A DNA stretch of 64,000 bases from Monodelphis domestica. Taxonomy: Eukaryota; Chordata; Mammalia; Didelphimorphia; Didelphidae. The notes beneath the pieces are model-generated. The model was not told the DNA's origin. It saw nothing but the letters and a program-made list of their open reading frames with translations, and did not search any database. Position numbers and translations under genes: made by a program. Below, in pieces: positions 2,000 to 63,608 of this stretch (its first letter is position 1; each line of letters starts with the position of its first letter). Where the stretch lies: contig NC_077228.1 in the NCBI RefSeq assembly GCF_027887165.1, positions 209,614,643-209,678,642 of the forward strand. Direction: 5' to 3'.

Positions 2000-2097
2000 G
2001 CAACATGTGGGCTCAAAGCTGGTCCAACATTTATGAGTTGGTGGTGCCCTTCCCCTCTGCCAGCCAGGTAGATGCCACTCCAGCTATGAAAAGCCAG
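2000..2097 (+). CDS. ACE: ACE exon 1 of 8 in window
   Basis: 98 nt; acceptor AG at 1998-1999, donor GT at 2098. Phase: needs one base from the previous exon, ends in phase 0. Encodes [19 protein letters not shown] and on to a final Q; W279 and Q281 equivalents (substrate/inhibitor contacts) are present. Same length as the ACE3 exon at 55719. Confidence 0.95.
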
Positions 2098-3660
2098 GTC
2101 AGTGATATGTCTGCCCTGCTCTCTGCCCCTTTCTCGGTGCCTCCTTCTCCTATCTTGTGCCTTCTGACACTTCTGTGCTCTTGATTCCATGATCCTCAAT
2201 AAGTAGGAGGAAGGGAGGGCTCCATTTAGGGTGAATTTGGGGTGTGCTTTGTTCAGAGGGGTCCCTTCCCACATTGTACCTAACACTTTGTCCCTTGGCT
2301 TCTGTATTGGAGAGTGCCCTGTGACTTTAGACAAATCATTTCCTTCTCTGTGACCCAGTTTACTTGGCCCTTGACAGCCACAGAAGTCTCTTCAGCTCTC
2401 CAGTTATGATCCTGTGATTCTCTGATCTTTTGCCTTCAGAACTGGACTGCCCAGAGGATGTTTGAAGAGGCAGACAAATTCTTCCAGTCCCTGGGTCTGT
2501 TGCCCTTACCCCCTGAGTTTTGGGACAAGTCAATGCTGGAGAAGCCAAAAGATGGGCGAGATGTAGTATGTCATGCTTCTGCCTGGGATTTCTACAATGG
2601 CAAGGACTTCAGGTGAGACAGAAAAGGGATGATATCCTTTCAGATCCCCTTGGAAAAGGGTAATGAACCTATAGAAAGTGGCATCCTTGCACCCCATCAA
2701 GAGTAAAGAGAAAATCTGACTGGCTAGTTCTGAAGGTTAGGGCACCATGATCAGCATATGGGTCAATTAGGGAACAAGCATTTAGTAAGTGCTTCCTGTG
2801 TATCTCATTTGACATCCACAACAATCCTGGGGGGGAGGTGCTATTATGATTCTCATTTTATAGAAGAGATGGATGCAAGCAAAATTATGTGCCCTTTCAT
2901 TAATCTTCTTTCCTTGCTTTTTAATCATGTCATGTTTCAGTATAGAAGCAGAGAAGGGTCTTTTCTATGTATAGTCCATCCAGCAATTTTTGTTGATTTG
3001 TTAATCTATCCCTCTTCCCATCACTCCCTACCTAATGAGATCTCATTCTCCCTCCCCACCTCTATCCTTCCTCTTATGTACACAGGATCAAACAGTGCAC
3101 AGTTGTAAACATGGAGGACCTCATTGTCATCCACCACGAGATGGGCCATGTGCAATATTTCATGCAGTACAAAGACCAACCTCTGACCTTCCGAGAGGGT
3201 GCTAACCCAGGTTTTCATGAGGCTATTGGAGATGTGCTGGCTCTCTCTGTCTCTACCCCCAAGCACTTACATAGTATTGGGCTGCTTGATAATGAGGGAG
3301 AGGGCTACGGTAAGTTAGAAGGTGGAAACTCAAGGGTAGTATGAAAAGTCAAAGATGGGCAGTAGCAGGTTAGGAAGACACTTGGGGGCTAGAGTGGAGA
3401 GGTGGGAAGGTTAGTGTAAGAGGCAGAACTGGGATAAAGGTTAAGCAAGATCAGAAGCTGCCTATGCAGTAGGAAGTAAAGGGAGAATCTTTTTGATGTT
3501 CTCTGTTAAATTTATGGTTGGCCTGAATATTTAATTGATCACCAGGGATTTAATTTCTAAATCCCCAAAATGAATGACTAAAGTAAAATGGAATTTATGG
3601 TAGTTTATTTTACAGTAGAGGGAAGATATTAAGGAAGAGAGAAAAGGGGAGAGAGTGAGT

Positions 3661-3751
<91 letters not shown>

Positions 3752-45920: not shown

Positions 45921-46023
45921 ATGGACAGATATTGGATTTTTTCCCTTGGGTCTTCCATATTTCTACTTTGCTCTTGTGGGCAGTTCCTCTCACTGCTCAG
46001 AGTGGGGAAAGCTGAGACTTCAG
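45921..46023 (+). CDS. ACE3: ACE3 exon 1: signal peptide
   Basis: 103 nt. ATG has G at -3 and G at +4. Encodes [19 protein letters not shown] and a second hydrophobic stretch (QFLSLL), then RVGKAETS; donor GTAGGG. It ends with one base of a split codon that fits the 46732 exon (G|AA = Glu). The start was chosen for the hydrophobic leader, phase match and good Kozak context; no transcript evidence. Confidence 0.72.
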
Positions 46024-49000
46024 GTAGGGCTAAGGACCAGGAGGGCTTGGTTATGAGTGAATTGAACATTTGGGGGGATCCTAGAAGTCTCATGGAATAA
46101 GGGTCACAAAGTCATGTATTTTAATTTGCCATCATGGCAAGAGAGATTCCTGATCCGGAGTAGTCAAGAGATGTGACATGTTGGGACTGAAGTAAAACCC
46201 CGACTAATTAGAAAGTCTTAGGGGAAGGGTTTAGACTGAACTTTAAAAGCCCACATGTGATTTAAGGACCATATTGGGTTGGGAATTCAGGAACTCAGTC
46301 TCTTGGGCTCCAGTCCCTTTCTGAACTCAAGCCTGCTCCTTGACTGGCCTTATTTTGTCTGGCCTGTCCACATGGTTAGCTGACCCATGGGGAATGTAAG
46401 ACCCAATGTGACCAGGGACTTTGAATTAGTTAGGCTGGTAAAATTTTTTTCTTTCTCTATTTTTTTTCTCCTTACTAATAAGTACTTACAAATTTAGTAT
46501 AAAATCTCTAAGATTAATTTTTATTCATAACAGTTGGGTGTAAAAAAGAATGTAGTATAATGGCAAGAGTATTGGTCAGAAGTTCTAGGTTCTCTTATCT
46601 ATACCACTAATTTGAAGCAAGCCACATCCATTTCCTGGGTCTCCGTTTCTACCTCTGTAAAATAGGAAATTGAACTAAATGATCTCAAAGGACCCCACTT
46701 TCTGACTTACGATGTTATCATTCTTCCCTAGAAGAGGATGACCATAGTCTCCCCAACTCTCCCAAAAGAACATCAGAAAGTGAGGAAGAGGCAAATACAT
46801 TCCTGAAAGAGTATGAAAAGACAGCTCTAATTGTGTGGCATGATTATGTGGAAGCTGCCTGGAATTACAACACCAACATCACTCTGTATAATCGTCAGCA
46901 AATGGTGGGCCTCTTTAACCCTGCCTTCCCCAGACTCTTCTCTCCTCTTGGTTGCATCCACTCCCAGGTCTTTCCTCTATTTTTACCCTGAATACTAAAG
47001 CACCAGTAAGTCTTTGGGGCCCATACACCACTTGTCCCAGGGAATAAGGGAAAGGAAATATCTAGCCCCAAATCACCTACAATTGGTCCCCACTAAGTTT
47101 TTTTTCTTTTCCAGGCTTAAATGCCCCCAATTCTTTAAGTCCTCCCATAGGGCTGAGATAAATGAAAAGAGAACTCTAAAGTCAATGGCACACAGATGCA
47201 GGCTTCCCTATCTCCTAAGCTCCCAGATTTTTTGAGAGCCAATCTAATGAAGTAGACTGGACTTGGAATCAGGAAGATGTGTATTCAAATCCAATAATCA
47301 TCAGATACTTAATGGCTGTGTGGCCCTAGTCACTGAAAAACCATGGGCTTCAAACAATTTCCTTATATATAAACAGAGAGATTAAGACTCATGGCCTCTA
47401 TGGTCCCTTTCAACTCTAAATCTATGTTCTAAGTGCCCTTTTATTGTCTTCTTAGGCTTTCTAGGAGGGGACAGAGCATCCAGGGTGAGGTGGCCTCTTA
47501 CATCAGGATTAAGTGCTCAAATGAAGGCAGAACTTAGGCTTCTTAGTGCCTTTCCAAACTCTCTGAGATAAGAACCTGTAACTTTTTTTTCCACCTTCCT
47601 GTGTTTAATGCATCTGAGATCCCAGGTCCCCTTTTTATCCATCCCATAATATTTATAGACTTGCATCTTCCCAAAGCTGAGAGTCTTGGCACTGGAAGGG
47701 CAAGAATAGGGAGAGTTAGCAAAAGTAAAGTTGGGGCAGAAAGGAAGAGAGAGGGTAAAATGTCTCTAGAGCTAAATGTGGGTACTGTACTTTCTTGTTT
47801 GAGACCCTTTCCTCCCTACAAAGCCCCCAAGGAGTTCCCCTTTCTTCTCTCTCATGATACATTCTATGACTTCCTCCTTTCTGGACCCTTCCCAGCTGGA
47901 AAAGAACTTCCTGATGGCTCAGCATACATTATATTATGGCACAAAGGCTCTCCAATTTAATATCACCAACTTCACTGACCCACTACTGAAGCGCATCCTG
48001 TGGAAGCTGAGGGAAATGGAGAGGGCCATCCTTCCCCAGGATGACCTTATGGAGGTAATAGGCCCAAGACAAAAGCCATTGTTCCCAAATTCTTCCTGAG
48101 CCCATCCCCTAATTGCCAGGCTATTGTGTAAAGCACTCAGGGATTCAGGACTTACTGATGGCCCCTCCCTGCCCAATAAAAGAATAAATAGGGCTCAGGG
48201 ATACATCTGTTAGTGACTGGCTCTTAGGAAATAGATGGGTTAAGGGAGCCAGAATGAGGGGGGTCTAGGAAAAGAACAGGGAATTGCAAACATATAAAGA
48301 GTGACTTCATTTCTGATATTACTCACACTGGTCCCCTGAATATGATATAAGGAAGAGAAATAGATGTGCAGTTAACATCTAGGTCTAGTACCCTCCCTCA
48401 TTACCTTCAGTTGTCCTTGGGGGTAAAGGAAGCAAAAATTTGGCATTTGTAGGAAAACTGTACCCCTTTTCTGAACTTTTGGGACTTAGGTATGGGTCAT
48501 AAAGAAGATAGCATGAAATTCAGGCAATCATGAATGCCTCCTCTTTAATGGGATCGAGGGGAAGACTGGGAAGTCTGAGGAGATATATTTGAGTGTGGGG
48601 AATGTGAGATGAAGGTGAAGAACACAATCATGCTTGGGGATAACATCTATTCTTCCCACCTCCAGTACAATCAACTTCTAACAAATATGGAGACAATCTA
48701 CAACATGGGTGATGTGTGCTCAGAAGAGGGACCTTGCATGTTCCTGGAGCCTGGTGAGCTTAGAGACAAGGGCAGAGAAAAGTGCAACCCTCTTGTTCTC
48801 CATTGGATCCCTATCCTACTCGTGCCCTCCATCAATACATACTCTACCACCTTCTTACTCTTCTGCTTCCTAATGGGGTGAATGGAGAAGGTATAGTCTA
48901 GATACCGCCTGAGAGGTATCACTGGTCCTACCTTCAACACTTAGGGTCTAAATCAGGAAAGAAAGGAGTAGGAAAAGGGCATTATTGATAGAGAGTCAAA

Positions 49001-52000
49001 GTGTCCATGACATGATTGGGGTTAGAGAGGAAAAAAACTCTGGAGGCTCTCATCCTTGCCCTCTAGTTCTTAACCTTTTCTATGCCATAGACCCTTTGGG
49101 TAGATGAGTGGAAGCATTTGGACTCCCTAGGATAATATTTTTAAAAGCATAAAACTCATAGGATTACCAAGGGTAGTAAAAATAATTTTTCCTGTCCAAG
49201 TTTATGGGCCCCCTAAAATCTATTGACAGATTTTGGGGTTTTCTGTGGACCCCAAGTTTAGATCCCTTGCTCCCAAGTGTGCTTTTGCTTGATGATACTC
49301 ATATAGAGCTTCCAGTCTTGGCCCTCATCATATGTGAGTCTAGACAGAGACTGTAAGGAACTTTGGAAATTCTATGGAGACTAGAGGATAGAGTAGAAAG
49401 GCAAGAAATGAGGATGAGGGGAAGGAGTCTATTTCTTCCAAAAAGGCTTTGCCAGAAAAGGCTAATGGTATGGAGGAGGGGAGGAGTGGGAAAGGAGAAG
49501 AGCCTAGGAAATGGTGGGCAAGGGTCATAGGACTGCAGAACCTGAATATCTGTTACAAACTCTTCCTCCCTGGACTCAGACCTTCTAAAGGTGATGGCCT
49601 TCTCCAGGAACTATAATGAACTTCTCTGGGCATGGCAAGGTTGGAGGGACACTATGGGCCAACAGCTGCGCCCCATCTACACTCGGTTTGTGGAGCTCAG
49701 CAACAAGGCTGCCAGGCTCAATGGTAAGGCAAATGAGACCCTCAATCTCCTATTGTTCTCCATTGACCACTTGGATTCATGCCCCTAAGTCTCCTTAGAA
49801 ATTCCCAACTCATTGAGGACACAGGTCCTCAGTGGCCCCCTACTCCCCAAAGACATTAATCCTATAAAAAGGGGAAAAAAGAAAGGTTATAACTATATCA
49901 TAAAAGGGAGTGGTCCTGATTTTAGTGGGAAGGAACCCTAGGGAGAAAATTCCAAGTTCTCTGATCTCTTTTCACCAGATCCTAGGGCCGTGATGGTGAA
50001 CCTATGACGTATTTTTGATGACATGTGGCCGCATGTGGCCGCATACAGAGAAGTATGGGGCTGCCTGCCGAGAAGGACTTTTCATCCTTGGCTCCTGCAT
50101 GGCCAGGCACAGTAGCCAAGGATAAAACATTTGCTGTAGTGTAGTGTAGACACTCTGTGCCAGTGGTCTGAAGACCAAAACAACAGAACTCTGGCATAGA
50201 ACATCTAATTCTGGAACTTCCGGTTAGGCCGTTAGGGGATCTTTGACCTCATTTCCAGCAGTCAGAGCAGGGAGCAGTGGAATGCCTGGGGAGGGGGGGG
50301 TGGGGATATGCATCTCTGGGGGCCCTGTGATCACCATTATCAGCAATCACATAACCACAGCAACCATCATCCAATCTACTGTTCTGGGGTGTAGTGGATT
50401 TCTAATTGACCATCATTTCTGAGATAAGTGAGGGGGAGGCTGGGAGAGGCGAGGGCCTGTGCTATGGGTGCCATTTCCTGCCATTAGAAATAGTGGCTGC
50501 CATCTTAATTTACATAAGGAACACCATATTGCAGCATAGTGCAGACTCCATTTCACTGCTATTACTGTTGTACATCCTTATTAACCCTATTTCTGTTTAT
50601 TAACTCTGCCCTTTCCTAAAAGATAGTTACACAGGCCATCTTGTGGTCAGTTAGGCTAGTTAACTCCTAATTGCCTGCAAGGCTAACAGGCTATCTATAA
50701 TTCTATCTTCTGTCATTGTCCCTTGATGGAGAACCCAAAAAATAAAAAAAATAAAAAAACCAAGGTTCAGTAAAGGAAGTGGTAGTAGCAGTAGCCTACT
50801 CTTTCTTTCTTTTTTTTTTTTAACCCTTACCTTCCATCTTGGAGTCAATACTGTGTATTGGCTTCAAGGCAGAAGAGTGGTAAGGGCTAGGCAATGGTGG
50901 TCAAGTGACTTGCCCAGGGTCACACAGCTGGGAAGTGTCTGAGGCCACATTTGAATCCCAAAACCTCCTGTCTCTAGGCCTGGCTCTCAATCCACTGAGC
51001 TACCCAGCTGTCCTCAGTAACCAACCCTTTCAAGAGACATGGACTGAGATGTATGGCATTATAGAAAAAAATGGCAGATCATTTTGTGTTCCATGTACTG
51101 AAATGGTAGTAAGCAGAATGTGGAATATAAATAGACATTTTGAAACTAATCATTCTCAGCTCTTGAAAAAAAAAGTGAGGATGAAAGGAAGGAATACATT
51201 TCTAGGCAGCTACACCTTTATAAGAGCCAATCTAATTCCATCATTAAATTTGTAAAAGGCTCTACAAATTTAACATCTGCAAGTTTGAGCATTGCTTACT
51301 CCATAGCTCAGCATTAAAGAAACTCTCCTAAGATGTGCACCAGTTTTATTTCACAATATGCAGAATAAAGATGCAATTATTAAGAGAATATCTGAGTTAC
51401 CACTCGGTAAAAATATCACAAAAGACTGAATAATGAGACTGAACATAAGCATACAACATCAATTAAATAGAGACAAGTAATTTTAAATATTTTTTCATCT
51501 CTTTTGATGAAACTACTGATGTCACATCACATGCTCAGTTGGCCATTATTGGTTGATATTCTGATGGTCTCAGAATGAGAAAAGAGTTGATAAAATTAGT
51601 AAGGGTGCCAACAAGTATATCAGGAAGTGAAATATTTAAGGCTGTTATACAAGCATTCTGTGACCTAAGCATTGATATCTCTAAAGTTGCATCAGTGACA
51701 ATAGATGGGGCACCAGACATGGTGGGGAAAAAAGTTGGATTTGTCAAATTGTTTACAGAAGCTATTGGACATCTGATTGTGCCTTTTCATTGTATTATCC
51801 ATCAGGAGGTTTTATGTGCCAAGGCAGGATTCACCGACTTAAATGACTTAATGTCAGTTGTTACAAAAATAGTTACTTTAATATCTGCTCTCCCCCTTCA
51901 CAAGCAAGAATTTTCTGCCCTTTTACTGGAGGTTGATTCCACCTACAGTGGACTGCTGATGTACAGTAATGTAAGATGGCTGAGCTGAGGCAAAGTTCTT

Positions 52001-55000
52001 GAGTGCTTTGTGGAGTGCTTTGAAGAAATTAAGGTATTTCTTGAGGATAAGGATCTGGGAAACTTTCCTCAGCTCAATGATGATAAGTGGGTCAATATCC
52101 TGATGTTTTTTACAGATCTCTCTGTTCATAGTAATGAACTGGACTTAAAGTTTTTGGCAAAAGTATTGATGTTATTTTTGGATATGTAAAAGCTTTTGAA
52201 AGGAAACTTAAAATTTTCAAGAGATGACTACAGCAGTTAAGGGGACATGATTGAGAAGAGACTCTAAATGAACACCCTAATGCAAATACCAACAACATGG
52301 AAATGGGTTCAAATCAAGGACACATGTGATACCCAGTGGAATCGCACGTTGGCTATGGGAAAGGGGGGGGGGGAGGAAAAGAAAATGACCTTTGTTTCCA
52401 ATTAATAATGTTTGAAAATGACCAAATAAAACAATGTTTAAAAAAAAAAGAAAAAATTTCAAGCGAGATATAGAAACTAAAACTTATATTTTCCTCCAGT
52501 AACAAAGTATTTTGAGAAGGCCAGTACAGCTGTACAAAATGAAATGGAACCCTTGCATATAAAGTACCAGCATGTTTTAGACTCATTACTTGACCAGTTC
52601 AGTGATAGATTTAATCAATTTAGAAGCCTAGGACAGACCATGAAAATAATTAAGTATCCTGATGTAGTAGTCTACAGTAGTTTGGAATTAAATGGTTTCC
52701 AATGGATGCAATTTGATGATTTAGAGATGAAACCTGCAGAATTTCAAGATAGCATCTGGCTCAGGTGACTTGAGGTCAAAGCTTGAGAATCTGGAAAGGG
52801 GCTGCTTGGAGAATCAAGAGAAGTACCATTACGAACAGGAAATTTGGAGTGCCTGGAACCAATTACCAGACACTTTTAGCACCCTGAAAAATATAGCAAT
52901 GGTTTTACTCACAATTTTTCCCTCTACATACTTTTGTGAGACCTTATTCTCAGCATAAATCAAAACCAACAAAAGAAACAGATTTACAGATGAAATTAGT
53001 AGCACTTACTTAGGCTTGAAGTGTACAAAATACCAACATTTAATTGACGATTTAGCCAATGAAATTCAGCAACAAAAAAAAAGTCACTAATAGGCAGGTT
53101 AGTTTAAGAATTCTCCCCCCCCCTTTACTTATATTAGTTCATGGCACCCCACACAAGTTAAATAATATCAAGACCAACAAAAGAAACTGACCAATGAACA
53201 AAGTCACTAAGCAGATAAGCTAAATAATTAGTTTTGAGTTTATTAAATAGAGTTATATATTACAATTACACATTTTTGTTATTTAAACCATAAATATCGT
53301 GAAATTATAGATTTTTCTTGAAGTGACACCACCCGAGTTATGCTCGGTTTTTTGGCGAATTTTGACACACCAAGCTCAAAAGGTTGCCCATCACTGGGGC
53401 TAAGGCAAGAGATAAGATAAAGAATATAATATGCATTTGGAGCAATGGGTAGAAATCTGGAACTAAAATCAGGAAAACTCATCTTCCTGAGTTCAAATCT
53501 GACCTCAGAGAGTTGTTAGCTGTGTGACCACATAAGTCATTTAACCCTGTTTGACTCAGTTTTCTCATTTGTCAAATGAATTGGAGAACTGGAGAAGAAA
53601 ATGGCAAACCACTCCAATATCTTTGCAAAGAAAATCCCAAATGGGGTCATGAAGAGTTGGGCATGGATAAGCAACAAAAATAATATGCATTTATGCTACT
53701 TGATACTTTTCAAAGCTCATTCCCACCTATTACCTAATTTGATTCTGTCATCAGGTCAACAGGGCAGTTGTGCCCATTTTTAGGATGAGTAAACTAGTCT
53801 AGGAGAGATTAAATAACTTGCTCAAGGTTATACAGCTAATTAACTATAGAATTGCAACCTAACTCTACTCTTAATGTTGTGCTCTTCCCACTGAAAGATG
53901 AAGGAACTAGGGATAGGTAGTAACCCAGATGAAATGTCAAGAATCTTTTATCTCTGTGTCTTGCCTTTCTTCCCATCTTTTCCATCCCAGGTCACACAGA
54001 TACAGGGGCCTCCTGGAGACAGATATATGAGTCACCCACCTTGGAACAAGACCTTGAGCAGCTCTATCAGCAACTAGAACCACTCTACCTAAACCTGCAT
54101 GCTTATGTGCGCCGAGCTCTTTACAATTACTATGGATCTCAATACATTAACCTAAAGGGATCCATTCCTGCCCACCTACTGGGTAAGTTGGATATAGGAG
54201 CAAGGGCAAAGGAACCTGAAGGAAGAGCCAGAGGAATTTAAAAAGAGGGAGACTGTTGCCAGGATACTGGAGCTGGAGAGTCATGGGAACTTTGGTGAAT
54301 AAATGAGGGTGATCAGAGAGAGAGTAGAGAATGTGATATAGGAGAAAGAATGGATGTAGGATTGGTGAATCTGGACTTTGAAACTGACTTACTTACTTCA
54401 TTTTTAAAAATCCATACTTTCCATCGTTGAATCAATATTATGTATTGGTTCTAAGGCAAAAGGGTAGTAAGGGCTAGGTGATAGAGGTTAAAAGACTTGC
54501 CCAGGATCATGTAGCTAGGAAGTATCTGAGTCTAGATTTGAACCCAGGACCTTCTATCTCCAGGCCTGGCTCTCTATCCACTGAGCAACCTAGCTGTCCC
54601 CTTTATTTTTATTTTAAAGGGGAAGATTTGTGACCTTGAGCTAGTCTTTTATCTGAACCTTGGTTTCCTTATCTTTAAAACGAGGGAGTTGGACTAAATC
54701 AGAAGTTCTGACAGAAACCCTTTTTTGACATATGGGCCCTTCTGGGAATCCAGTAAAGCTTATGGGCCCCATTTTGGAATATTGTTTTTAAACACATAAA
54801 ACAAAATACATAGGATTAGAGAAGCTAAGCTCTGATATTCTCTGATCCTATACCAAGGATTGGGGATCAGAAATGGTGATAAGGGGAGGGGAGAAAGACC
54901 AGGTAATGCAAATTGAGAGGATGCCCATCAATTGGGGAATGACTGAACAAGTTGTGGTATATGATTTGGTGGAATTCTATTGTGCTATAAGAAATGAAAA

Positions 55001-58000
55001 GCAGGAGGAAAGACTTCTATGAACTGATGCAAAGTAAAGTGAGCAAAACCCAGAGATCATTGTATATCATAACAGCAATATTGTACATTGATCTACTATG
55101 AATGATTTATCTATTATCAGCAATAGAGTGATCAAAGACCAAAGGACATAATGAAAAATGCTATCCACCTCCAGAGAAAGAACTGATGGATGAATTCATA
55201 CCAGAGCATATTTTTTAAAAACAACTTTACTTTTCTTATTTGTTTGGTTTTTTTGGTCCATTTTGTTTTATATGACCAATACAGAAATGTTTTACATGAC
55301 TACACATGTATTCCCTATATCAAAATTCTAGCCTTCTCAATGTGTAGGGAAGGAGAGGATTTAAAACTCAATTTTAAAAAATGGTTGTTAAAAATGTTTT
55401 CATATGTAATTAGAAAAAATATTAAGAAAGAAAAAAGAAAAGAAGGAAGGAAGAAGGAAGGAAGGAAGGAAGGAAGGAAGGAAGGAAGGAAGGAAGGAAG
55501 GAAGGAAGGAAGGAAGGAAGGAAGGAAGGAAGGAAGGGAGGGAGGGAGGGAGAAGAAAAAAAGAGTGAACAGAAAGATCAGGCAGAGCAGGGGAGAAAAA
55601 GAATCTTGTGCTCCTTTTTTTCCCCTGAGGTTAAGTAGAATAACATTTCTTTCTCCATTCCTTCTTATTTCCTTCCTTTTCCCTATGTTATCGTTTGTCC
55701 TGCTGCTCCTCTTCCTAGGGAATATGTGGGGTCAGTCCTGGATCAACATAATTGACCTAGTCATACCCTTTCCTTTATCCACCAGAATAAACGTCACCAT
55801 GCTCATGAAAAGCCAGGTAAGTATCTAATTTGACCCTGCCCCCTACTGCTTGACCTCTAACCCTATTTTGTAACCTCATATACTCCTGCTTTTCCAGCCT
55901 GCCCCAGCAAATGGAGAAGGCATTTCTTGTTGTGCTGACAAACTGGAGAAGGCAGTAACCCATATTCCCTTCTTGACCTTATAGCACTGGACACCCTATA
56001 AGATGTTTGAGGAGGCTGACAAATTCTTCCAGTCTCTGGGGCTGTTCCCTGTTCTCCCTGAATTCTGGGCCAAATCAATGTTGGAGAAGCCAGGGGATGG
56101 AAGAGCAATGTCGTGCCAAGCTTCTGCCTGGGACTTCTATGATGGAAAGGACTTCAGGTGCTCATTAAGGAAGCCAAAGAACGTAATGTGTACCAGTCTA
56201 GTTTTAGCAGTATTAGAAATCTCTCTCACACACTTTCTCTTTCACTTTCCCTCTCTTTTGCTTTCTCTCTTTTCTACTTTCACTTTCACTTTCTCTCCTT
56301 TGCTTTCTCTTTCACTTTCCCTCTCTTTCTCTTTTTCACCTTCTCTCTCTTTCTCTCTCTCAACCTCTCCTCTCTCTTTATGTCTCTCTGACTATCTTGC
56401 TATTTCTGTCTCTCTTAATCTCTCTCTTTGACTTTCTCTCTTTTTCACTTTCTCTCTCTCTTGCTTTTCTTTCTCTTTTGCTTTCTCTCTCTCACTTTCT
56501 CTCACTTTTGCTTTCTCTTTCACTTTCTCTCTTTTTCACTTTCTCTTTTTTGTTTTCTCTCTCTCTCCTCTCTCTCTCTCCCCCTCCTCTCTCTCTGACT
56601 GTCTCTCTTACTATCTCTGTCTCTTTCAATCTCTCTCACTTTCCCTCTCTTTTTTGCTTTCTCTTTTTCACTTTCTCTCTTTCCCTTCTTCCCTCTCTTT
56701 TCTCTTTGTCTGTCTCTCTCTCTATGTCTCTGTCTCAATCTCTCTCTCTTTTGCTTTCCCTCTCTCTTTTTCATTCTCTCTCTGTCTCTCAACCTCTCCT
56801 CTTTGTCTCTGTCAGTCTCTCTGACTACCTCTGTCTCTGTCTCAATCTCTCTCTCTCTTTTTTGCTTTCCCTCTCTCTCCCTTTTGTTTTCTCTCTCCCC
56901 CCTCTCTCTGTCTCTCAATCTCTCTTCTCTCTTTGTCTGTCTCTCTGTCTCTCTCAATATCTCTGTCTCTATCTCAATCTCTCTTTCTGTCTTTCTCCCT
57001 CTTTCTCTCTGTCTCTCTGTAACTCACCCTGTCTGTTTCTGTCTCTATCTCTCTCTGTGTGTCTCTGACTCTATCTCTCTCCATCTCTCTCACTCTCTCT
57101 GTCTCTTCTCTCTATCTTTCATCTACGTAGGTCAGTGCAGTGGTGAAAACACCAGGCTTAGAGTCAGGAGATTTGGGTTTTAGTCCCTACTCTGCCACTG
57201 ATTTACCCTGTGACCTTAAGCAAGTGATGTCCCCTTTTGGAAACCTCAGTTTCCCATCTAAAACATTAAAAATAGACTATGTAAGCTCTACCATCTATCT
57301 ATTCCAACCCTAACAGTCTATGATTATGTGATACCAGGGGTAAAGGCTCTGCGTTCTTGTTTAGTCACCCAACCTAACATTTTAGTATCTTGACAGCTTA
57401 GAATCTTCACTCTGAAGAACTGGAAATCTCTCCTGCTTTAATAAAGCATCATATATTTTTGTTAAGACCCACTGAAATTCCAGGTGGAACTTATTGTTAT
57501 TCCCCTCATAAAAACTCCAAAGATTAAATGAATTCAACAAACGCTTTTTGAGCATTAGCTGTACAAGACTCAGTGGAGAACCCAAAGAAGTATAGGGATA
57601 TGATCACTGAGTTTGCAGCCGTTTGGGGCTAACAAATAAGGACATGAAAGACTATGCTACCGCAGTTACTGTAAGATGGCATTACCAGACAGTACATGGT
57701 GAATTGTCAAAGGAGTTATACAGATAATAAGTTTAGAGGCATGAGTTTAAAGGCACAATAACTGCCACGAGATTAGAAGGAGAGATCTTGGGAGATCTCT
57801 GGGAGAAGAAGAGACTTGAGCTGGGTCCTAAACGATAGGTAAAGCTCAAGCCCCTAGATGGTGCAGTGGATAGAGTGCCTGAAGTCATAAAGACTCATCT
57901 TCTGGAATTCCAATCTGGCCTCAGATACTTATGAGCTATGTGAACCTGAGCAAGTCACTTAACTCTCTTTGCTGTAGAACCCTCATCTGTAAACTGAGTT

Positions 58001-61000
58001 GGAAAAGGAAATGGCAAACCACTTCAGTAACTTTGCCAAGAAAATCCCAATGGGGTCACTAAAAGATGGATATGACTGAACAACAACAATAAAGTCTTAA
58101 AACAATTAAGTTATTGACTTTATATTTGGAATCATAGGATTTATAGATAGGAGAAGAATTTTTTTAAGACCTTACATTCTGTCTTAAAATGAATTCTAAG
58201 ATAGAAGAGTGGCAAGGGCAAGGCAATTGGGGTTAAGTGACTGGCCCAGCGTCACACAGCTAGGAAGTATCTGAGACCAGATTTGAACTCAGGTTCTCCT
58301 GTCTCCAGGACTGGATGGAGATCTATCCACTGTGCTACCTACCTAAAATCATTTAGTTCAATCCCTTCCTGTGAAGCAATTCACTCAAGTCACCCAGGTG
58401 GTAAAAGTCAAAGTCAAGATTTCAAACTAGGTCTTCTGATTACAAATCCAGTGCTCTATCACTAATTACACATTCTCTTCTATAGCCTATTTAATCTCAA
58501 TCACTTAAACTTTTCATCATAAGAAAGATCACTTTGGACTCTCTCATCTCTTAATTTAACCCCTACTTTCCTCTTCCACTTTTGCCCCAGGATAAAGCAG
58601 TGCACTGGGGTGAATATGGAAGATCTGATATCCGTCTTCCATGAGATGGGCCATATCCAATACTTCATGCAGTACAAGAATCTGCCCTTGCCACTCCGAG
58701 ATGGGGCCAACCCAGGCTTCCATGAGGCCATAGGGGATGTGGCAGCCCTCTCTGTCTCCTCCCTCAAGTACCTTCACAACTCAGACCTGCTGATCAATGA
58801 AATAGAGGACTATGGTGACTAGAACTTTGGGGGTAGGATGGCTCTTCAGGTGGAGGTCTGGGAAGGGAGACTTGTGGGCAATGGAGGCAGCAGGTCTTGG
58901 GTGGGAAGTCAAGGTGGGCTCAAAGGTTTACTAAAGGAAGACTAGATGGGGAAAGGAAGATAAATTATTCAATTAGTAGGCATTTATTAAGCCCCTATGT
59001 GCTAACCACTTAGGATACAAAAAGACACAAATGATAGCCCCTACCCTCAAAGAACTTACAGTCTAATAGGGGAGACAACATGTAAACAAAAAGCAAGGAT
59101 GAATAGATAAAAGAGGGGAAAGTGCTAGAATTAAAAGGGGTTAGGGGTAGGATTTTACATAGGATATGTAGCTCAGATACATGGTCTGGGGATCCCTATA
59201 CTAGGGCCTTTTGAACTTTCAGTGTCTCCCTGGAAGGTCAAAATGATGAAAAGAAAGTTAAAAGACAAAGATGCCATTGTGTTGTCTCTTTCAACACTAA
59301 TAATCTATGATCCTAAGACTTAGGGAGGAAAGGTTCTAGGGCTGCTAAACTTCCTGAGTTCTTCTCTCTATCTACAGAAAGTGAAATCAACTTCCTCATG
59401 AGTATAGCATTGAAAAAGATTGCCTTCATCCCCTTCAGCTACCTGGTGGACCAGTTTCGTTGGAGAGTCTTTGATGGCCGCATCACCAAGCAATTTTACA
59501 ATAAGAAATGGTGGGACCTAAGGTCTGGGACTATTCTGCCTTTCATATCATAGGGCCTCTCTGAGGTAGGGGTGGTAATAGGGAAGCTTGTAAAAATTTT
59601 CTCAGAGGTATGGTCAATCACCTAATTCTCCTGGCTAGTACAACCCCTGAATCTCAGTCCAAAGTAGTCCTAATATGAGTGTGGAGAGGAAGGTGCCATT
59701 ATGATGATTCCTTTTTTGCAATTGAAGAAACTGAGGTAGATAGAGGTTAAGTGACTTGCCCAGGGTCATAAAAATGTTAAGCGCCTAAGGTAGAATTGGA
59801 ATTCTGATCTTCCTGACTCCAGGTCCAGCACTCTTATCCACTGCTCTACTAGTATAACATTGGGCAAAGCATTTCCCTTCACCATTCTTCATTTTCCTCC
59901 CCTATAAAATGGGGAAGGTTGGACTCAATAGCTTCAGAAGCTCCCTCCAGTTCCTAGGATTTCTCTCTATTTGCTGTCCAACTCTTGCTTTGGGAGCCCC
60001 GTTCTAAGAACCAATCTCCACTGGGACCCTTCTACATGAGTAGTCCTCATTTAGTGGCTTAGGCTGTCACTTGGACTATGCGGTAATATAAGAAATGGTT
60101 GGCTTGTGGCAACCAAAACTCATGGCTCATTAAATCCATTCTGAAACTTCTTGACCATCAGCCCTCATTTGATTGGCAACAGAAAATGTTCCTATATCAT
60201 TCTGCCAGTAAGACCTGACCTAAATAGCAAGGTCTAGGGCCATGTTTCCCACCATGAGCAAATAGTGAGCCAAAGGGAACATGTCCTTAATATGTCCCTT
60301 ACGTCCTTGAGTCTTCAAACTACAATGTTAATAGAATTGATTTGGTCTGAATCAAGTAATCTGGTTCTGATAATAGTTGCATTGAGAGCACTTCAAATGG
60401 GATCTAAAGGGGGCAGCTGGGTAGCTCAGTGGATGGAGAGCCAGGACTAGAGATGGGAGGTCCTAGGTTCAAATCTGGCCTCAGATACTTCCCAGCTGTG
60501 TGACCCTGGGCAAGTCACTTGAGCCCCATTGCCTAGCCCTTACCACTCTTCTGCCTTGGAGTCATTGACTCCAAGATGGAAGGTAAGGGTTTAAAACATA
60601 ACAAAACAAAACAAATGGGATCTAAGCAATGTTACAAGGGAATCACTTTAAAAGACTGATATATATTAATTTAAGGTCGCCAAGGAATCAGCTATGTAAT
60701 TCCTAAATGAAAAACTCAAGTCAGCCGTCAGCCTTTTTTGGAGTTTAATTACAATAGGAGCAAGAAAGGAATTAGAGATATATATAGAGAGAGAAAGGGG
60801 AGAGAAGGGAATAGGGCTTAAATACCCCTTCTGTTTAGGCTGGGCCAAAAGGCCCAAGCCCTTAGATAGCTGGGGCAAAGAAAAGAGATCAGTCCCTTTC
60901 ACTCACGTGTCCAAAATGGAGAAACAGTCTCAGAGGCCCCCACCTTCAGCTTCCTTCAGAGCAAGCTTCCTCAGAACCACACCGACCCAAAAACTCAATC

Positions 61001-63608
61001 CTCCTCAAGTCTCCAGACCCTCCTATCTTTAAGGAAACCATCCAAGTTGCCTCCCCTCAGTCCTCACATCTACCAATCACTCTTCATCAATTTCCCTGTC
61101 AATGGAGGCTCTCGCTTAACCCAGGACCGCCCAGAGGTTTCTGGCTTTTGCACATGTCTGTTGAAGGTCATATTTTTCAAATGATTAAATCTTTACTCTT
61201 TTGTTACAGCCCTTTCTAAATCCTGTTAACTTGAGTATGGTAGAGATTGGAATAATTAAATTTTGATCTAGGCTGCAGCCCTTACTCAATCCTATTAGGA
61301 CTGAATAGGGTGGAGATTTATTCCAAGTATCTCCATTGTATCAATTCTAAAATCAATCAAGACTCAAAGAAATTCCTGTTCTATGCTTAAGCATAGGTCA
61401 AAGTCCTTTCCATTGTTCAGCAAAGGGTTTCTGTCCTAAAGTAATCTTAAGAAGGGAAGAGAAGGAACCTCCCATGCCAATGGAGTTCCCATTCCAATAG
61501 ACTATCAGTAAGAAATTTTCCAAGTATGAAATATCCCAATGGTGAAATTTCCAACATTTATAAGTCTAAGGAATTTTGAGGTTTACAGCAAGGATATAGA
61601 GATTAGAAAGTTCAAGGTGCTTATATGCAAGGTGCTTGAATGAACCTCTTTGGCAGATAAGATTGGAGATATACACTTAAGCCTCTCAGAACCTGTTTTC
61701 TCATCTATAAAACAGGACTAACACTTGTGCTACTGACCACATAGGTTTATTTGGTGAAAAGGGAAGCATTTTATAAATATGACACATAGTAATAAAAAAC
61801 AAAATCCTATAATTTCTTCAGCTCAAGGGACTCCTGGTATGGGAGATCTGTCCACAGACTGTAACCATTTTATTATTTAATGACTAAGTCTTCAGGCACA
61901 GAAATTAAATAACTTGCCATTTAGCTAGTGAGTGTCAGACATGAGATGGGAATGGTTTTCCTGACTCCAAGTCTAGCATTACATCTACTAAGCACACAGT
62001 TCTCAAACCTTTTGGTCTAGAACTCTTTTACACTTTAAAAAATTATTGGGGTCCTCCCCCAAAATAATTTTTGTTAATGTTTATATTTATCTATCATTTA
62101 ACCATATTAGAAATTAAAATGTCTTGATATCATTATAAAAATAGTTTTGACCTTACAGGCCTCCTCAAAGGGTCTCAGGGACCCCAAGGATTCCTGGACC
62201 ACACTTTGAGAATTGATACACTAAGTACAAATCTTCTACTTGGAAACTTTAAAGTTTTATGTAAATATGAGTTCTTATATTTATAAACATGAGTTATTAT
62301 TATTAGCTTGCATTTATGATTGAGTAGAAAACATTAACATCAGCAAGAAGGCTGGAAATATTCATTTGTTTCAAAACTTGATTCTCTCTGTCACTTCTTT
62401 CTCCAACGACCACACAACTTCTCCTGATTTACTGGAAAGAGCATTAGATTTTGAGTCAAAAGTACTAGGTTCAAATTCTGTTCTGACACTTGCTACCTAT
62501 TATTAAACAAATTACTTCTCATCCCCAGGCCTTGGATTCTTTGAAGGGATTGGGAGAGGACTGGAATTATTGTTATTGTTCAGTCGTTTTTCAGTCATGC
62601 CTGACTCTTCATAACCCCATTTGGGTTTTTCATGGCAAAGATACTCAAGTGAGTCGCCATTGCTTTCTCCAAGTAATTATATATATATAGATGAGGAAAC
62701 TGAGGTAAACCGGGCCAAGAGACTTGCCCAGGTCACCAACTAGTAAGTGTCTGAGGCCAGATTTGATTTCAGGAAGATGAGCCTTTCTGACTTCAGGCAC
62801 CATGCCACCTCCAGAGATTGGAGTACATGGCCCCAAAGATCCCTTTCCACTTTAGATGTATGTTCCTATGAACTTATCTCTAGGCTACCCCAAATGAAAA
62901 ACCCTTAGCTGGAAAAAAGGGACAATTGGGAGTCTAGCTCTGGTTCTGCCACTCACCTAGGGCAAATGCTTCACAACTCAGTTTTCCTATCCATTAAGTT
63001 AGGGAGAATAAAAGCTGCTATTTGGAAATCAAATGAAACAAAAGCGTCAGGGAAGAACAGTAGATAGATATAGCCTCATAATCAGGAAAAAGTTCACATT
63101 CCATCTCTGACATACACTGGCTTTATGACCCTAGATAAGTCATTATTTTTAGTCTCAGTTTCCTTTTCTGTAAAATTATAATGCATCTACCTCACAAGGT
63201 TACTATTGTAATGACCAAATGAGATAATGTATGTAAAGTGGTTTGTAAACCTAAAAGCACTATACAAATGCTAGCTCTTATTATTATTAATCTCAGAGCT
63301 CTAGACAACTCTCTAATTCTTTAACTATAAATTATAGTGCTATAGTTGAAATTCATTAAGAATCAGATTTTCCTAACTATAATAAATTCACTATACCAAT
63401 GGAAACATGATACTGAACAAAAAAAATGAGAAGATAAATAGAAAATTATTTTGAAAAGCCCAAAGCTGCTGCTGACATCATGATCATTTGTCATATTTTC
63501 CCTTGTCAGGTTAAAATATCAGGGATTGTGCCCACCAGTGCCAAGGTCAGAGGAAGACTTTGACCCAGGTTCTAAGTTCCATATTGCTGGCAATGTGCCT
63601 TATATCAG
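45921..63608 (+). CDS. ACE3: ACE3-like single-domain zinc metallopeptidase, first eleven exons
   Basis: Single ACE domain with its own signal peptide, tandem to ACE, matching mammalian ACE3 (testis/sperm-associated in mouse). Exons: 45921-46023, 46732-46904, 47896-48054, 48666-48753, 49580-49723, 53991-54182, 55719-55816, 55985-56157, 58591-58814, 59378-59522, 63510-63608; all GT-AG, phases match, 532 codons with no stop. The three C-terminal exons seen in ACE lie beyond the window. Testis-ACE residues kept: W279, Q281, C352/C370, A354, E376/D377, H383-E384-H387, E411, W485/W486/R489, K511/H513, Y520. Changed: H353 to Gln, E403 to Asp, V380 to Ser. Placental ACE3 proteins are known for Gln in place of the catalytic Glu; here Glu is present, so activity is possible. 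An alternative reading is a retained testis-ACE-like duplicate under another name. Confidence 0.9.
46024..46731. other. First ACE3 intron
   Basis: Unique-looking, with a MIR-like stretch at about 46570-46715 ('tctgtaaaataggaaattga'). Confidence 0.5.
46732..46904 (+). CDS. ACE3: ACE3 exon 2
   Basis: 173 nt; acceptor CCTAG, donor GTGGGC. Begins with an acidic linker ([20 protein letters not shown]), then the ACE-domain start: [34 protein letters not shown] is a possible N-glycan site, conserved in ACE. Confidence 0.9.
47235..47430 (+). repeat. MIR-like SINE in ACE3 intron
   Basis: 'ggacttggaatcaggaagat', 'tgtgtggccctagtcac', '...tatggtccctttcaactc'. The rest of this intron (46905-47895) is unique-looking. 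Confidence 0.55.
47896..48054 (+). CDS. ACE3: ACE3 exon 3
   Basis: 159 nt, phase 0 both ends; acceptor CCCAG, donor GTAATA. Encodes [19 protein letters not shown] through [17 protein letters not shown]. Aligns with the lid helices of ACE (human QIANHTLKYGTQA). Confidence 0.9.
48055..48665. other. ACE3 intron, no recognised element
   Basis: Nothing repeat-like seen. Confidence 0.4.
48666..48753 (+). CDS. ACE3: ACE3 exon 4
   Basis: 88 nt; acceptor CCAG, donor GTGAGC. Encodes [18 protein letters not shown], then [11 protein letters not shown]. The two Cys match the small conserved disulfide loop of ACE (C152-C158). Confidence 0.9.
49067..49265 (+). repeat. Old MITE-like repeat (GTTCTTAACC family)
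   Basis: Starts 'agttcttaaccttttctatg', then 'aagcataaaactcatagg' and '...gggccccctaaaatc'. The rest of this intron (48754-49579) is unique-looking. Confidence 0.55.
49580..49723 (+). CDS. ACE3: ACE3 exon 5
   Basis: 144 nt; acceptor CTCAG, donor GTAAGG. Encodes [24 protein letters not shown] and [12 protein letters not shown], a highly conserved ACE segment. The following intron contains the decayed hAT element. Confidence 0.92.
50808..51013 (-). repeat. SINE nested in the hAT element
   Basis: 'taacccttaccttccatctt' to 'tcaatccactgagctaccc'; fairly intact. Confidence 0.9.
51020..53090 (+). pseudogene. hAT transposase pseudogene (BED finger, GTF2IRD2/ZBED-type)
   Basis: DNA-cutting enzyme of hAT elements. 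N-terminal BED-like finger: FCVPC...NRHFETNH (CX2C...HX4H) at about 51085-51155. Catalytic-core blocks (51575-51988): [38 protein letters not shown]-terminal dimerisation block [24 protein letters not shown] (about 52890-52958). Several in-frame stops (for example near 51555 and after VRWLS), frameshifts, and an L1 insert at 52226-52453. Not functional. It is read with the GTF2IRD2/SCAND3 branch by motif style; the exact family needs a database search. Confidence 0.82.
52226..52453 (+). repeat. L1 3' UTR fragment inside the hAT transposase
   Basis: 'cagttaaggggacatgattg' to 'aataaaacaatgttt' plus A-tail; near-identical to the 3' UTRs at 20.0 and 29.0 kb, so a late 5'-truncated insertion. Confidence 0.92.
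53439..53679 (+). repeat. MAR-type SINE with target duplication
   Basis: ATAATATGCATTT flanks it at 53426-53438 and 53680-53692. Complete tail with 'cccaaatggggtcatgaag'. Confidence 0.92.
53991..54182 (+). CDS. ACE3: ACE3 exon 6
   Basis: 192 nt; acceptor TCCCAG, donor GTAAGT. Encodes [20 protein letters not shown], then [36 protein letters not shown]. The RRALYNYYG segment matches RRALHRHYG of human ACE. Confidence 0.94.
54401..54600 (-). repeat. tRNA-derived marsupial SINE
   Basis: 'gtattggttctaaggcaaaa' to 'ctgagcaacctagctgtccc'. Confidence 0.85.
54702..54850 (+). repeat. Old MITE-like repeat (GTTCTTAACC family)
   Basis: 'gacatatgggcccttctggg', 'aaacacataaaacaaaatac', 'ataggattaga'; 5' end eroded. 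Confidence 0.45.
54910..55436 (+). repeat. Old L1 3' end
   Basis: 'gaggatgcccatcaattggg' (ORF2 end) through the 3' UTR to an A-rich tail that turns into the GGAA microsatellite. Confidence 0.8.
55437..55552 (+). repeat. (GGAA)n microsatellite
   Basis: About 24 tandem GGAA/GAAG units followed by three GGGA units. Lies 167 nt upstream of the ACE3 exon at 55719. Confidence 0.96.
55719..55816 (+). CDS. ACE3: ACE3 exon 7
   Basis: 98 nt; acceptor TTCCTAG, donor GTAAGT. Encodes [20 protein letters not shown] to MLMKSQ. A280 becomes Gly, while W279 and Q281 are kept. Same length and phase as ACE 2000-2097. Confidence 0.94.
55985..56157 (+). CDS. ACE3: ACE3 exon 8
   Basis: 173 nt; acceptor TTATAG, donor GTGCTC. 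Encodes [20 protein letters not shown] through [21 protein letters not shown] replaces the CHASAW of ACE, a His-to-Gln change at the H353 equivalent. The open frame continues into the pyrimidine-rich intron, but the conserved exon stops at 56157. Confidence 0.94.
56219..57118 (+). repeat. ~900-bp polypyrimidine (CT-rich) tract in ACE3 intron
   Basis: Nearly all C and T, mixing CTCTTT, CTCTGT and CTTTCA words in degenerate units. It starts about 60 nt after the donor at 56158. Long open frames through it on both strands are composition artefacts. Confidence 0.95.
57125..57335 (+). repeat. MIR-like SINE
   Basis: 'ggcttagagtcaggagattt', 'ccctgtgaccttaagcaagt', 'aacctcagtttccc'. 57336-57849 is unassigned intron. 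Confidence 0.65.
57850..58091 (+). repeat. MAR-type SINE
   Basis: 'cctagatggtgcagtggata' head, 'ctcatctgtaaactgag', tail 'gactgaacaacaac'. Confidence 0.85.
58159..58344 (-). repeat. tRNA-derived marsupial SINE
   Basis: 'gacttacattctgtctta'-type start, 'ggttaagtgactggcccag', 'tatccactgtgctacctacc'. Confidence 0.8.
58591..58814 (+). CDS. ACE3: ACE3 exon 9: zinc-site exon with intact HEMGH
   Basis: 224 nt; acceptor CCCCAG, donor GTGACT. Encodes [16 protein letters not shown], then [28 protein letters not shown] and on to NEIEDY. Both zinc His, the catalytic Glu and the third ligand are present. E403 is Asp. The residues before HEMGH are SVF rather than the VIH seen in ACE here. Confidence 0.96.
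58975..59090 (+). repeat. Old dispersed repeat
   Basis: 'aggcatttattaagccccta...agaacttacagtctaat', same type as 6170-6315. The rest of the intron 58815-59377 is unassigned. Confidence 0.5.
59378..59522 (+). CDS. ACE3: ACE3 exon 10
   Basis: 145 nt; acceptor CTACAG, donor GTCTGG. Encodes [34 protein letters not shown] and KKWWDLR. WW..R of the chloride-I site is kept. DQFRW replaces DQWRW. Confidence 0.94.
59695..59860 (+). repeat. MIR/LINE-like old repeat
   Basis: 'ttgaagaaactgaggtagat', 'gtgacttgcccagggtcat', '...cactcttatccactgctc'. 59861-60407 is unassigned intron. Confidence 0.5.
60408..60611 (+). repeat. tRNA-derived marsupial SINE with target duplication
   Basis: CAAATGGGATCTAA flanks it at 60394-60407 and 60612-60625. 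Well preserved, 'gggcagctgggtagctcag' head. Confidence 0.93.
60630..61587 (+). mobile_element. Solo ERV LTR (sister of 24142-25136)
   Basis: 958 bp, TGTTACAAGG...GGTTTACA, with GCAA on both sides (60626-60629 and 61588-61591). Colinear with the LTR in L1 copy B, with small indels. Lies in the last ACE3 intron in view. Confidence 0.88.
61588..62569. other. ACE3 intron, mostly unassigned
   Basis: 62000-62215 has a decayed 'gttctcaaaccttttggtct' repeat with 'ctcagggaccccaaggattc'; 62430-62560 looks MIR-like. Confidence 0.4.
62570..62812 (-). repeat. MAR-type SINE
   Basis: 'ttattgttcagtcgtttt', 'aaccccatttgggttttt', 'gagacttgcccaggtcac', 'catgccacc'. Confidence 0.8.
63050..63295 (+). repeat. 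MIR/THER-like SINE
   Basis: 'tagataagtcattattttt', 'acctcacaaggttactattg', '...ctatacaaatgctagctc'. Confidence 0.65.
63510..63608 (+). CDS. ACE3: ACE3 exon 11 (last in window)
   Basis: 99 nt; acceptor TTGTCAG, donor GTAAAG. Encodes [17 protein letters not shown], then [16 protein letters not shown], with K511, H513, Y520 and split-codon R522 equivalents. The gene continues to the right. Confidence 0.94.

What the first reader, a model, noticed from the sequence alone, without database searches (positions are those of the whole stretch)
58591..58814. ACE3 that keeps the catalytic HEMGH motif
Seen: the zinc-site exon of the second gene reads HEMGH with HEAIGD downstream, so both His ligands, the catalytic Glu and the third ligand are intact. 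Known: ACE3 in rodents and other placentals has Gln instead of that Glu and is thought to be catalytically dead, and in human it is a pseudogene. Inference: the marsupial gene may preserve an active ancestral state, with loss of activity in the placental lineage.
Basis: partly seen in the sequence, partly recalled or inferred. Interest (0 to 1): 0.8.

Follow-up and report, generated by a model that had tools for sequence, protein, structure and literature searches.

The report
Opossum ACE3 keeps its catalytic glutamate
The gray short-tailed opossum carries an intact copy of ACE3, a sperm-type relative of angiotensin-converting enzyme, that still has the catalytic glutamate that placental mammals lost, but it has lost a neighbouring substrate-holding histidine, so whether it is a working enzyme is open and testable.

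Summary
Window 58591-58814 is exon 8 (224 bp, as in mouse) of an intact 14-exon ACE3 gene in Monodelphis domestica, about 32 kb downstream of ACE. It encodes HEMGH plus HEAIGD. With 10 kb more of the same assembly the reading frame is open for 749/750 codons. ACE3 arose once, on the therian stem (tree support 96/89 and 100/100). All 6 marsupial species found keep Glu384, His410 and Asp415. Of 78 placental ACE3 rows, 74 have Gln384 (the others H, L, R, E) and none has His410 or Asp415. Two corrections: the human ACE3 pseudogene is published as HEMGH (Rella 2007), on this tree most simply a reversion; and all 6 marsupials lack His353 (Gln in 5, Arg in bilby), a substrate-anchoring residue present in 186 of 187 ACE rows. 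Placentals lost the general base, marsupials an anchor. Keeping Glu384 alone proves little: 142 of 183 ACE-invariant sites are kept in all 6. Most likely a zinc protein with restricted peptidase activity, or else a marsupial pseudopeptidase by another route; an assay decides.

The parts
58591..58814 (+). ACE3 exon 8 (224 bp): zinc-site exon, HEMGH and HEAIGD; the finding
   Evidence: AG and GT borders and mouse exon 8 size 224 bp; E about 1.8e-55 to human ACE C-domain for exons 8+9 joined
58640..58654 (+). HEMGH: His383, Glu384 (GAG 58643-58645), His387 (testis ACE numbering)
   Evidence: codon map
58721..58738 (+). HEAIGD: His410, Glu411 (third zinc ligand), Asp415
   Evidence: codon map
56117..56119 (+). 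CAA = Gln at the His353 position (substrate anchor), exon 7
   Evidence: codon map; His in 186 of 187 ACE rows with a residue there
45921..46023 (+). ACE3 exon 1a: ATG and putative signal peptide, phase-1 donor
   Evidence: similar to the N-terminus of tammar wallaby P0008; in frame with exon 1b. No signal-peptide predictor was run, and no 19-residue window here passes the hydropathy cut of 1.6
46732..46904 (+). ACE3 exon 1b (start of the M2 domain)
47896..48054 (+). ACE3 exon 2 (159 bp, mouse 159)
48666..48753 (+). ACE3 exon 3 (88 bp, mouse 88)
49580..49723 (+). ACE3 exon 4 (144 bp, mouse 144)
53991..54182 (+). ACE3 exon 5 (192 bp, mouse 192)
55719..55816 (+). ACE3 exon 6 (98 bp, mouse 98)
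55985..56157 (+). ACE3 exon 7 (173 bp, mouse 173)
59378..59522 (+). ACE3 exon 9 (145 bp, mouse 145)
63510..63608 (+). ACE3 exon 10 (99 bp, mouse 99), with Lys511, His513, Tyr520; exons 11-13 lie beyond the window, up to the stop at C2:209688178
1999..14084 (+). 3' part of the neighbouring ACE gene (C-domain exons, last exon 13878-14084)
   Evidence: tblastn

Best explanation
This is the opossum orthologue of ACE3: a single-domain M2 protein with a putative signal peptide and two C-terminal hydrophobic segments, made by a tandem duplication related to ACE's C-domain on the therian stem (shown by tree and gene structure). Marsupials kept the ancestral zinc site with its general base, Glu384, and His410 and Asp415; placentals lost all three on their stem (shown). 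On the marsupial stem, however, the residue that holds the P1' backbone of the substrate, His353, was replaced (shown for 6 of 6 species: Gln in 5, Arg in bilby). The mechanism I think most likely (inferred): it binds zinc, sits on testis/sperm membranes as mouse ACE3 does, and is a weak or substrate-restricted dipeptidyl carboxypeptidase. Water would still be activated by Glu384 and Zn, while the missing His353 contact limits it to peptides that fit or help themselves, as ACE2 lacking the equivalent His345 is dead on one test substrate but, as alanine mutant, active on angiotensin II.
For: Intact gene: exons 2-11 have exactly the mouse sizes (10 of 10), no stop in 749/750 codons, two hydrophobic segments at the C-terminus as in mouse. 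ACE3 clade 100/100; platypus ACE falls outside ACE3 plus therian ACE at 96/89 (56 rows); same ACE3 clade with 8 active-site columns masked, 100/99. ACE3-diagnostic residues shared with placentals: Phe382 (6 of 6 and 78 of 78), Phe467 (6 of 6; 68 of 78), Ser380 (5 of 6; 78 of 78). Glu384, His410, Asp415: 188 of 188 ACE rows and 6 of 6 marsupial species each; placentals 1, 0 and 0 of 78. Of 19 residues that contact drugs or zinc (17 from PMC12820606, plus His387 and Glu411), 17 equal the human ones in Monodelphis (P0121). His353 (His331 in the N-domain) hydrogen-bonds the P1' amine and carbonyl in the ACE complexes of five drugs. ACE2 H345A is dead on Mca-APK-Dnp and active on angiotensin II; a decoy bearing H345L with other changes has very little activity on angiotensin II, and H345L over 300-fold less on the fluorogenic peptide. 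A true ACE C-domain with Gln353 occurs: Tamandua, 1 of 187 ACE rows.
Against: No transcript, protein or activity data for a marsupial ACE3 showed in the listings; the marsupial transcriptome papers listed there were not opened. Retention of Glu384 is weak evidence by itself: 142 of 183 ACE-invariant sites are kept in all 6 marsupials, gaps counted as kept. Contact sites are not kept better than other invariant sites: 1 of 15 versus 4 of 168 replaced in at least 90% of rows, Fisher p 0.35; deviating cells 9 of 90 versus 80 of 1003. The pocket also drifts in single species: bilby Arg353, Asn511, Tyr512; devil Thr354, Ser356. ACE3 evolves 1.9 times as fast as ACE between opossum and devil. The Tamandua Gln353 rests on one database record.
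Confidence: 0.5

Rival explanations
1. Marsupial ACE3 is a pseudopeptidase too. Catalysis was already dispensable for ACE3 in the therian ancestor, whose useful role was scaffolding (for example with IZUMO1 on sperm). The two lineages then eroded different residues: placentals Glu384, His410 and Asp415; marsupials His353. Zinc stayed as a structural ion in both.
For: His353 replaced in 6 of 6 marsupial species, with Arg in bilby; bilby also lost Lys511, devil Ala354 and Ala356. Placental rows keep His383 78 of 78, His387 77 of 78 and Glu411 78 of 78 without the base, so zinc ligands are kept without catalysis. His353 has also gone in 9 of 78 placental rows. 142 of 183 ACE-invariant sites are kept in all 6 marsupials, so Glu384 may persist by fold constraint. 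Mouse ACE3 binds IZUMO1 and its knockout is fertile (PMC2858660, passages and Discussion).
Against: All three residues whose loss marks placental inactivation are untouched in 6 of 6 marsupial species, American and Australian, and 17 of 19 contact residues are human-like in Monodelphis. Gln can still donate a hydrogen bond (general knowledge).
Confidence: 0.37
2. One reading: marsupial ACE3 is a fully ACE-like active peptidase, simply the ancestral enzyme.
For: HEMGH, HEAIGD, Lys511, His513, Tyr520, Arg522 and Tyr523 intact in Monodelphis.
Against: His353 replaced in all 6 species, against 1 of 187 ACE rows. Val380 to Ser in the S1' pocket, though this position also varies within ACE (V 99, T 80, I 9 of 188). 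The corresponding ACE2 mutants lose at least the fluorogenic-substrate activity.
Confidence: 0.08
3. The gene is intact on paper but not used: a recent pseudogene or an untranscribed duplicate.
For: The human copy is a pseudogene (PMC1925091); no marsupial transcript was seen here; the Monodelphis UniRef entry P0121 is an ACE-ACE3 fusion model rather than a separate gene. Several other marsupial models are imperfect: P0001 and P0007 lack exon 11, P0008 has extra and missing pieces.
Against: Open frame of 749/750 codons over 14 exons. Five other marsupial species have an ACE3 frame 72-80% identical to the window, and site variability follows that of ACE (Spearman 0.47, p 7e-28), which neutral drift would not give. 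Most other rows are predicted proteins, so the sample is biased towards intact genes.
Confidence: 0.05
4. The HEMGH exon was copied back from the neighbouring ACE gene by gene conversion, so it says nothing about ancestry.
For: The two genes lie in tandem about 32 kb apart.
Against: Exon 8 of the two genes is 71% identical in DNA, with 12 of 20 fourfold sites differing; exons 6, 7, 9 and 10 are 61, 78, 74 and 80%, so exon 8 does not stand out. It carries the ACE3-diagnostic Phe382 and Ser380.
Confidence: 0.01

Closest known systems
ACE3 / tACE3 of mouse, rat, cow and dog (Rella 2007, PMC1925091; Inoue 2010, PMC2858660)
   Same: Same place downstream of ACE, same exon sizes (exons 2-11 identical to mouse), 14 exons, single M2 domain, N-terminal leader exon, two C-terminal hydrophobic segments, one clade in the tree
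   Different: HEMGH not HQMGH; His410 and Asp415 kept, where most placental rows have Glu and Ser; Gln369 not Lys; His353 lost, where 69 of 78 placental rows keep it
Human ACE3 pseudogene (Rella 2007)
   Same: HEMGH reported for the restored human sequence
   Different: The human copy has frameshifts and stops; the opossum copy is open. Bush baby, slow loris, mouse lemur and tarsier ACE3 read Gln (5 of 5 rows, 4 species), so the human Glu is most simply a reversion, as in Mastomys; inferred, the human sequence itself was not examined here
Testis ACE (C-domain of ACE)
   Same: All zinc and base residues; 17 of 19 drug or zinc contact residues of human ACE in Monodelphis ACE3
   Different: His353 to Gln, Val380 to Ser, His382 to Phe, Trp467 to Phe; separate gene
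ACE2 His345 mutants (PMC8053926, PMC8053976)
   Same: Lack the equivalent histidine with zinc ligands and base intact
   Different: Laboratory mutants to Ala or Leu in a carboxypeptidase; here a natural Gln in an ACE-type protein

Membership tests
ACE3 (therian single-domain ACE paralogue) | Lies just downstream of ACE, same strand | tested here: met
   ACE ends at 14084, ACE3 starts at 45921, both +
ACE3 (therian single-domain ACE paralogue) | Exon structure of mouse Ace3 | tested here: met
   Exons 2-11 identical in size, 10 of 10; exon 12 is 191 vs 185, exon 13 is 338/341 vs 359
ACE3 (therian single-domain ACE paralogue) | Groups with placental ACE3 rather than with marsupial ACE | tested here: met
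   100/100, 100/99 with active-site columns masked
ACE3 (therian single-domain ACE paralogue) | HQMGH (reported by Rella 2007 for mouse, rat, cow and dog, not for human) | tested here: not met
   HEMGH; on the tree HQMGH is a placental-stem trait, not one of ACE3 as a whole
ACE3 (therian single-domain ACE paralogue) | Testis/sperm expression, IZUMO1 association | not testable with these tools
   No marsupial expression data in the listings
Peptidase family M2 (PF01401), fold | M2 domain by profile | tested here: met
   738 bits, profile positions 2-487 of 581 for the in-window part; no structure was predicted
Active M2 peptidase | Zinc ligands His383, His387, Glu411 and base Glu384 | tested here: met
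   Codons read
Active M2 peptidase | Second shell Asp415, and Lys511, His513, Tyr520, Tyr523 | tested here: met
Active M2 peptidase | P1' anchor His353 (186 of 187 ACE rows; conserved in ACE2 as His345) | tested here: not met
   CAA = Gln at 56117-56119; 6 of 6 marsupial species lack His
Active M2 peptidase | Measured peptide hydrolysis | not testable with these tools
   Needs expressed protein

The most novel reading that the evidence does not exclude
Marsupial ACE3 is a natural His353-less ACE: an active sperm peptidase whose missing anchor makes it work only on a narrow set of peptides, perhaps those that supply their own histidine as suggested for ACE2 H345A on angiotensin II. ACE3 would then be an enzyme in one half of the therians and a pseudoenzyme in the other.
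Probability: 0.15. Interest if true: 0.72.

Novelty: new variant of a known kind. Interest (0 to 1): 0.47.

Why it matters
ACE3 is described as a likely pseudoprotease from four placental species. The marsupial form dates the loss of the base to the placental stem and makes HQMGH a placental trait. It also gives a matched pair (base lost and anchor mostly kept; base kept and anchor lost) for asking whether catalysis mattered for a sperm protein whose mouse knockout is fertile. Swapping a few residues in laboratory proteins would answer it. It also questions whether the HEMGH of the human relic is the ancestral letter.

Tried and rejected
Gene conversion of exon 8 from ACE: rejected, exon 8 is not unusually similar. 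Contact residues better conserved than other ACE-invariant sites in marsupials: not shown (1 of 15 vs 4 of 168 replaced, p 0.35), so I do not claim selection on catalysis. The test has little power: the placental clade, which lacks the base, gives 1 of 15 vs 14 of 168, p 1.0. A CRE-like promoter element (TGAGGTCA): the exact motif occurs 12 times in the window against 2.8 expected, the nearest upstream copy about 0.9 kb before the ACE3 start; a one-mismatch copy, cgaggtca, lies at 45852-45859 and I make nothing of it. Formal dN/dS: no DNA of another marsupial was at hand, so only protein rates were compared. Structure prediction: not run; it would bear on the fold but not on activity. The ACE-ACE3 fused UniRef model P0121: taken as an annotation join, because the ACE last exon (13878-14084) and a separate ACE3 start exon (45921-46023) are both intact; Rella 2007 does describe a human ACE transcript that runs into ACE3 exons, so a read-through transcript is not excluded. 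The quick tree of all 274 rows (FastTree) agrees on the ACE3 clade (1.0) but supports its place beside therian ACE less well (0.82) and platypus outside (0.89).

Rows dropped or limited: each protein search listed only its best 120 of several thousand hits, giving 272 distinct proteins. Counts of '6 marsupial species' leave out P0005 (second devil model) and P0121 (same gene as the window); the table counts all 8. The careful tree uses 56 of the 274 rows. In the 142 of 183 count a gap counts as kept. Positions 523 and 527 are gaps or wrong letters in rows whose models or cuts end there, and are not used for counts. A stray hydropathy peak at residue 457, inside the M2 domain, was ignored.

Full report
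What is there. Window 58591-58814 is one exon with clean AG and GT borders that reads HEMGH and, downstream, HEAIGD. tblastn and splice borders place it in a row of ACE-like exons from 45921 to the window's end. Exons 2 to 10 have exactly the mouse Ace3 sizes printed in Table 2 of Rella 2007 (PMC1925091; outline, passages, Results part 1 of 2 and Discussion seen): 159, 88, 144, 192, 98, 173, 224, 145, 99. A protein search returned a UniRef entry of Monodelphis domestica (P0121) that equals the window's protein except for 5 letters at model junctions, so the window is gray short-tailed opossum. The window's own assembly could be searched: it lies at C2:209614643-209678642 of a 3.59 Gb assembly. 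Ten more kilobases hold exons 11 (123 bp, as in mouse), 12 and 13. Joined, the 14 exons give 749 or 750 codons without a stop (two possible acceptors 3 bases apart), starting with a leader exon at 45921 and ending after two hydrophobic segments. The leader is called a putative signal peptide by position and by likeness to the tammar wallaby N-terminus; no predictor was run. Inoue 2010 (PMC2858660, passages and Discussion) found 14 exons, a signal peptide and 737 residues for mouse testis ACE3. Upstream, 1999-14084 is the end of ACE itself, with its own HEMGH.

Relatives. Three protein searches (the best 120 hits of each) gave 272 proteins. Of 274 domain rows, 86 form an ACE3 clade: 8 marsupial rows from 6 species (window, brushtail possum, devil, monito del monte, bilby, tammar wallaby) and 78 placental rows; 188 rows are ACE. 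An IQ-TREE of 56 chosen rows gives ACE3 as one clade at 100/100, marsupial ACE3 100/99, placental ACE3 100/100. ACE3 is sister to therian ACE, with platypus ACE outside both at 96/89. The quick tree of all 274 rows agrees with weaker values at those forks (0.82, 0.89). With eight active-site columns masked the ACE3 clade stands at 100/99. No row named as a monotreme fell in ACE3; platypus was listed only as two-domain ACE (P0234). So ACE3 most likely comes from one duplication on the therian stem. One review reports finding no ACE3 outside mammals (PMC3354321, passages).

Active site (testis ACE numbering). Positions 353-369-384-410-415 read HQEHD in 186 of 188 ACE rows (one row has Gln353, one a gap at 353). 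Marsupial ACE3: QQEHD in 5 of 6 species, RQEHD in bilby. Placental ACE3: HKQES in 58 of 78, none with His410 or Asp415; Gln384 in 74 of 78, the rest His (aardvark), Leu (a guinea pig row), Arg (panda) and Glu (Mastomys). On the masked tree, position 384 needs 3 changes among the 56 rows, which I read as Glu to Gln on the placental stem, then aardvark His and Mastomys Glu; position 353 needs 7. Rella 2007 reports HEMGH in the human pseudogene. Because the bush baby, slow loris, mouse lemur and tarsier rows read Gln (5 of 5), the human Glu is most simply a reversion, like that of Mastomys; this is inference, since I did not examine the human relic.

What it means for activity. In the ACE N- and C-domain complexes of five drugs, His353 (His331 in the N-domain) hydrogen-bonds the P1' amine and carbonyl (PMC12820606, passages). 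In ACE2 the same histidine is His345, conserved with both ACE domains (PMC7642307, passages). H345A is dead on Mca-APK-Dnp but fully active on angiotensin II (PMC8053926, whole text). A decoy protein carrying H345L with other changes shows very little activity on angiotensin II, and H345L over 300-fold less on the fluorogenic peptide (PMC8053976, whole text). A third group states that H345A keeps activity on full-length substrate (PMC8686446, passages). No test of Gln at this place in an ACE showed (20 of 39 papers listed). A true ACE, that of the anteater Tamandua (P0015), has Gln353, so Gln may be tolerated, but it is one record. In Monodelphis 17 of 19 drug or zinc contact residues equal the human ones; only His353 and Val380 differ, and position 380 varies within ACE too.

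Controls against over-reading. 142 of 183 ACE-invariant sites are unchanged in all 6 marsupials, so any one invariant residue has about a 78% chance of being kept. Contact sites are not kept better than other invariant sites (the same test is just as flat for placental ACE3, so it has little power). Placental ACE3, which lacks the base, keeps the three zinc ligands (78, 77 and 78 of 78). Hence the zinc ligands say nothing about catalysis, and Glu384, His410 and Asp415 together are suggestive only. ACE3 evolves faster than ACE: 1.9 times between opossum and devil, and 1.3 to 2.6 times in five placental pairs. Its variable sites follow those of ACE (Spearman 0.47), so it is under constraint as a folded protein.

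Literature. Searches for ACE3 with marsupial or opossum (14 of 14 papers listed), pseudoenzyme or IZUMO1 terms (15 of 21), marsupial sperm proteome (15 of 111) and Monodelphis, wallaby or koala with testis (12 of 144) listed no paper on marsupial ACE3; only open-licence PMC papers are searched, and the marsupial papers listed were not opened. Databases do carry automatic names such as 'angiotensin-converting enzyme-like protein Ace3' for Dromiciops, so the gene is annotated; the motif pattern was not found in print by these searches. A 2024 review of pseudo-metallopeptidases has no occurrence of 'angiotensin' or 'M2 family' (PMC11266112, term search). Mouse ACE3 binds IZUMO1, and its loss leaves males fertile with a wider IZUMO1 distribution (also PMC9374335, passages).

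Verdict. The functional half is open: placentals lost the base and its neighbours, marsupials lost a substrate anchor. I give about even odds to a restricted peptidase, somewhat less to a second, independent pseudopeptidase, and little to full ACE-like activity.

Noticed in passing
P0121 (UniRef A0A5F8GM13), covering window 1999-63608 and beyond: The public Monodelphis entry joins part of ACE to ACE3 in one 1174-residue protein, skipping ACE's last exon and ACE3's first exon; probably an annotation join, though a read-through like the human ACE isoform 3 is possible.
   Followed up: partly
placental ACE3 rows P0264, P0249, P0263, P0262: Position 384 is Glu in Mastomys, His in aardvark, Arg in panda and Leu in a guinea pig row: the site drifts after the loss of the base, and Mastomys re-reads HEMGH without His410 or Asp415.
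   Followed up: yes
P0015, Tamandua testis ACE: A true ACE C-domain with Gln instead of His353, the only one in 187 ACE rows with a residue there; other anteater or sloth ACE genes were not seen.
   Followed up: partly
P0007, bilby ACE3: Arg353, Asn511 and Tyr512: the pocket looks most eroded in bilby among the 6 marsupials.
   Followed up: partly
G000 contig C8, about 236.51-236.56 Mb, minus strand: The only other M2 exons found in the opossum assembly besides the ACE-ACE3 cluster (35 matches in all); presumably ACE2, not tested.
   Followed up: no
window 50884-52958: Fragments of open frames in ACE3 intron 4 that look by eye like a decayed DNA transposon protein; Pfam found nothing at E 0.01 in the four pieces scanned.
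   Followed up: partly
window 55410-55570 and 56217-57180: Long simple repeats in ACE3 introns 5 (GAAG type) and 7 (TCTC type) that give long spurious open frames.
   Followed up: no
window 14085-45920: About 32 kb separates ACE and ACE3 here, against 5.5 kb in mouse (Rella 2007); strand skew (AT skew 0.37 at 20-24 kb) hints at inserted repeats.
   Followed up: no
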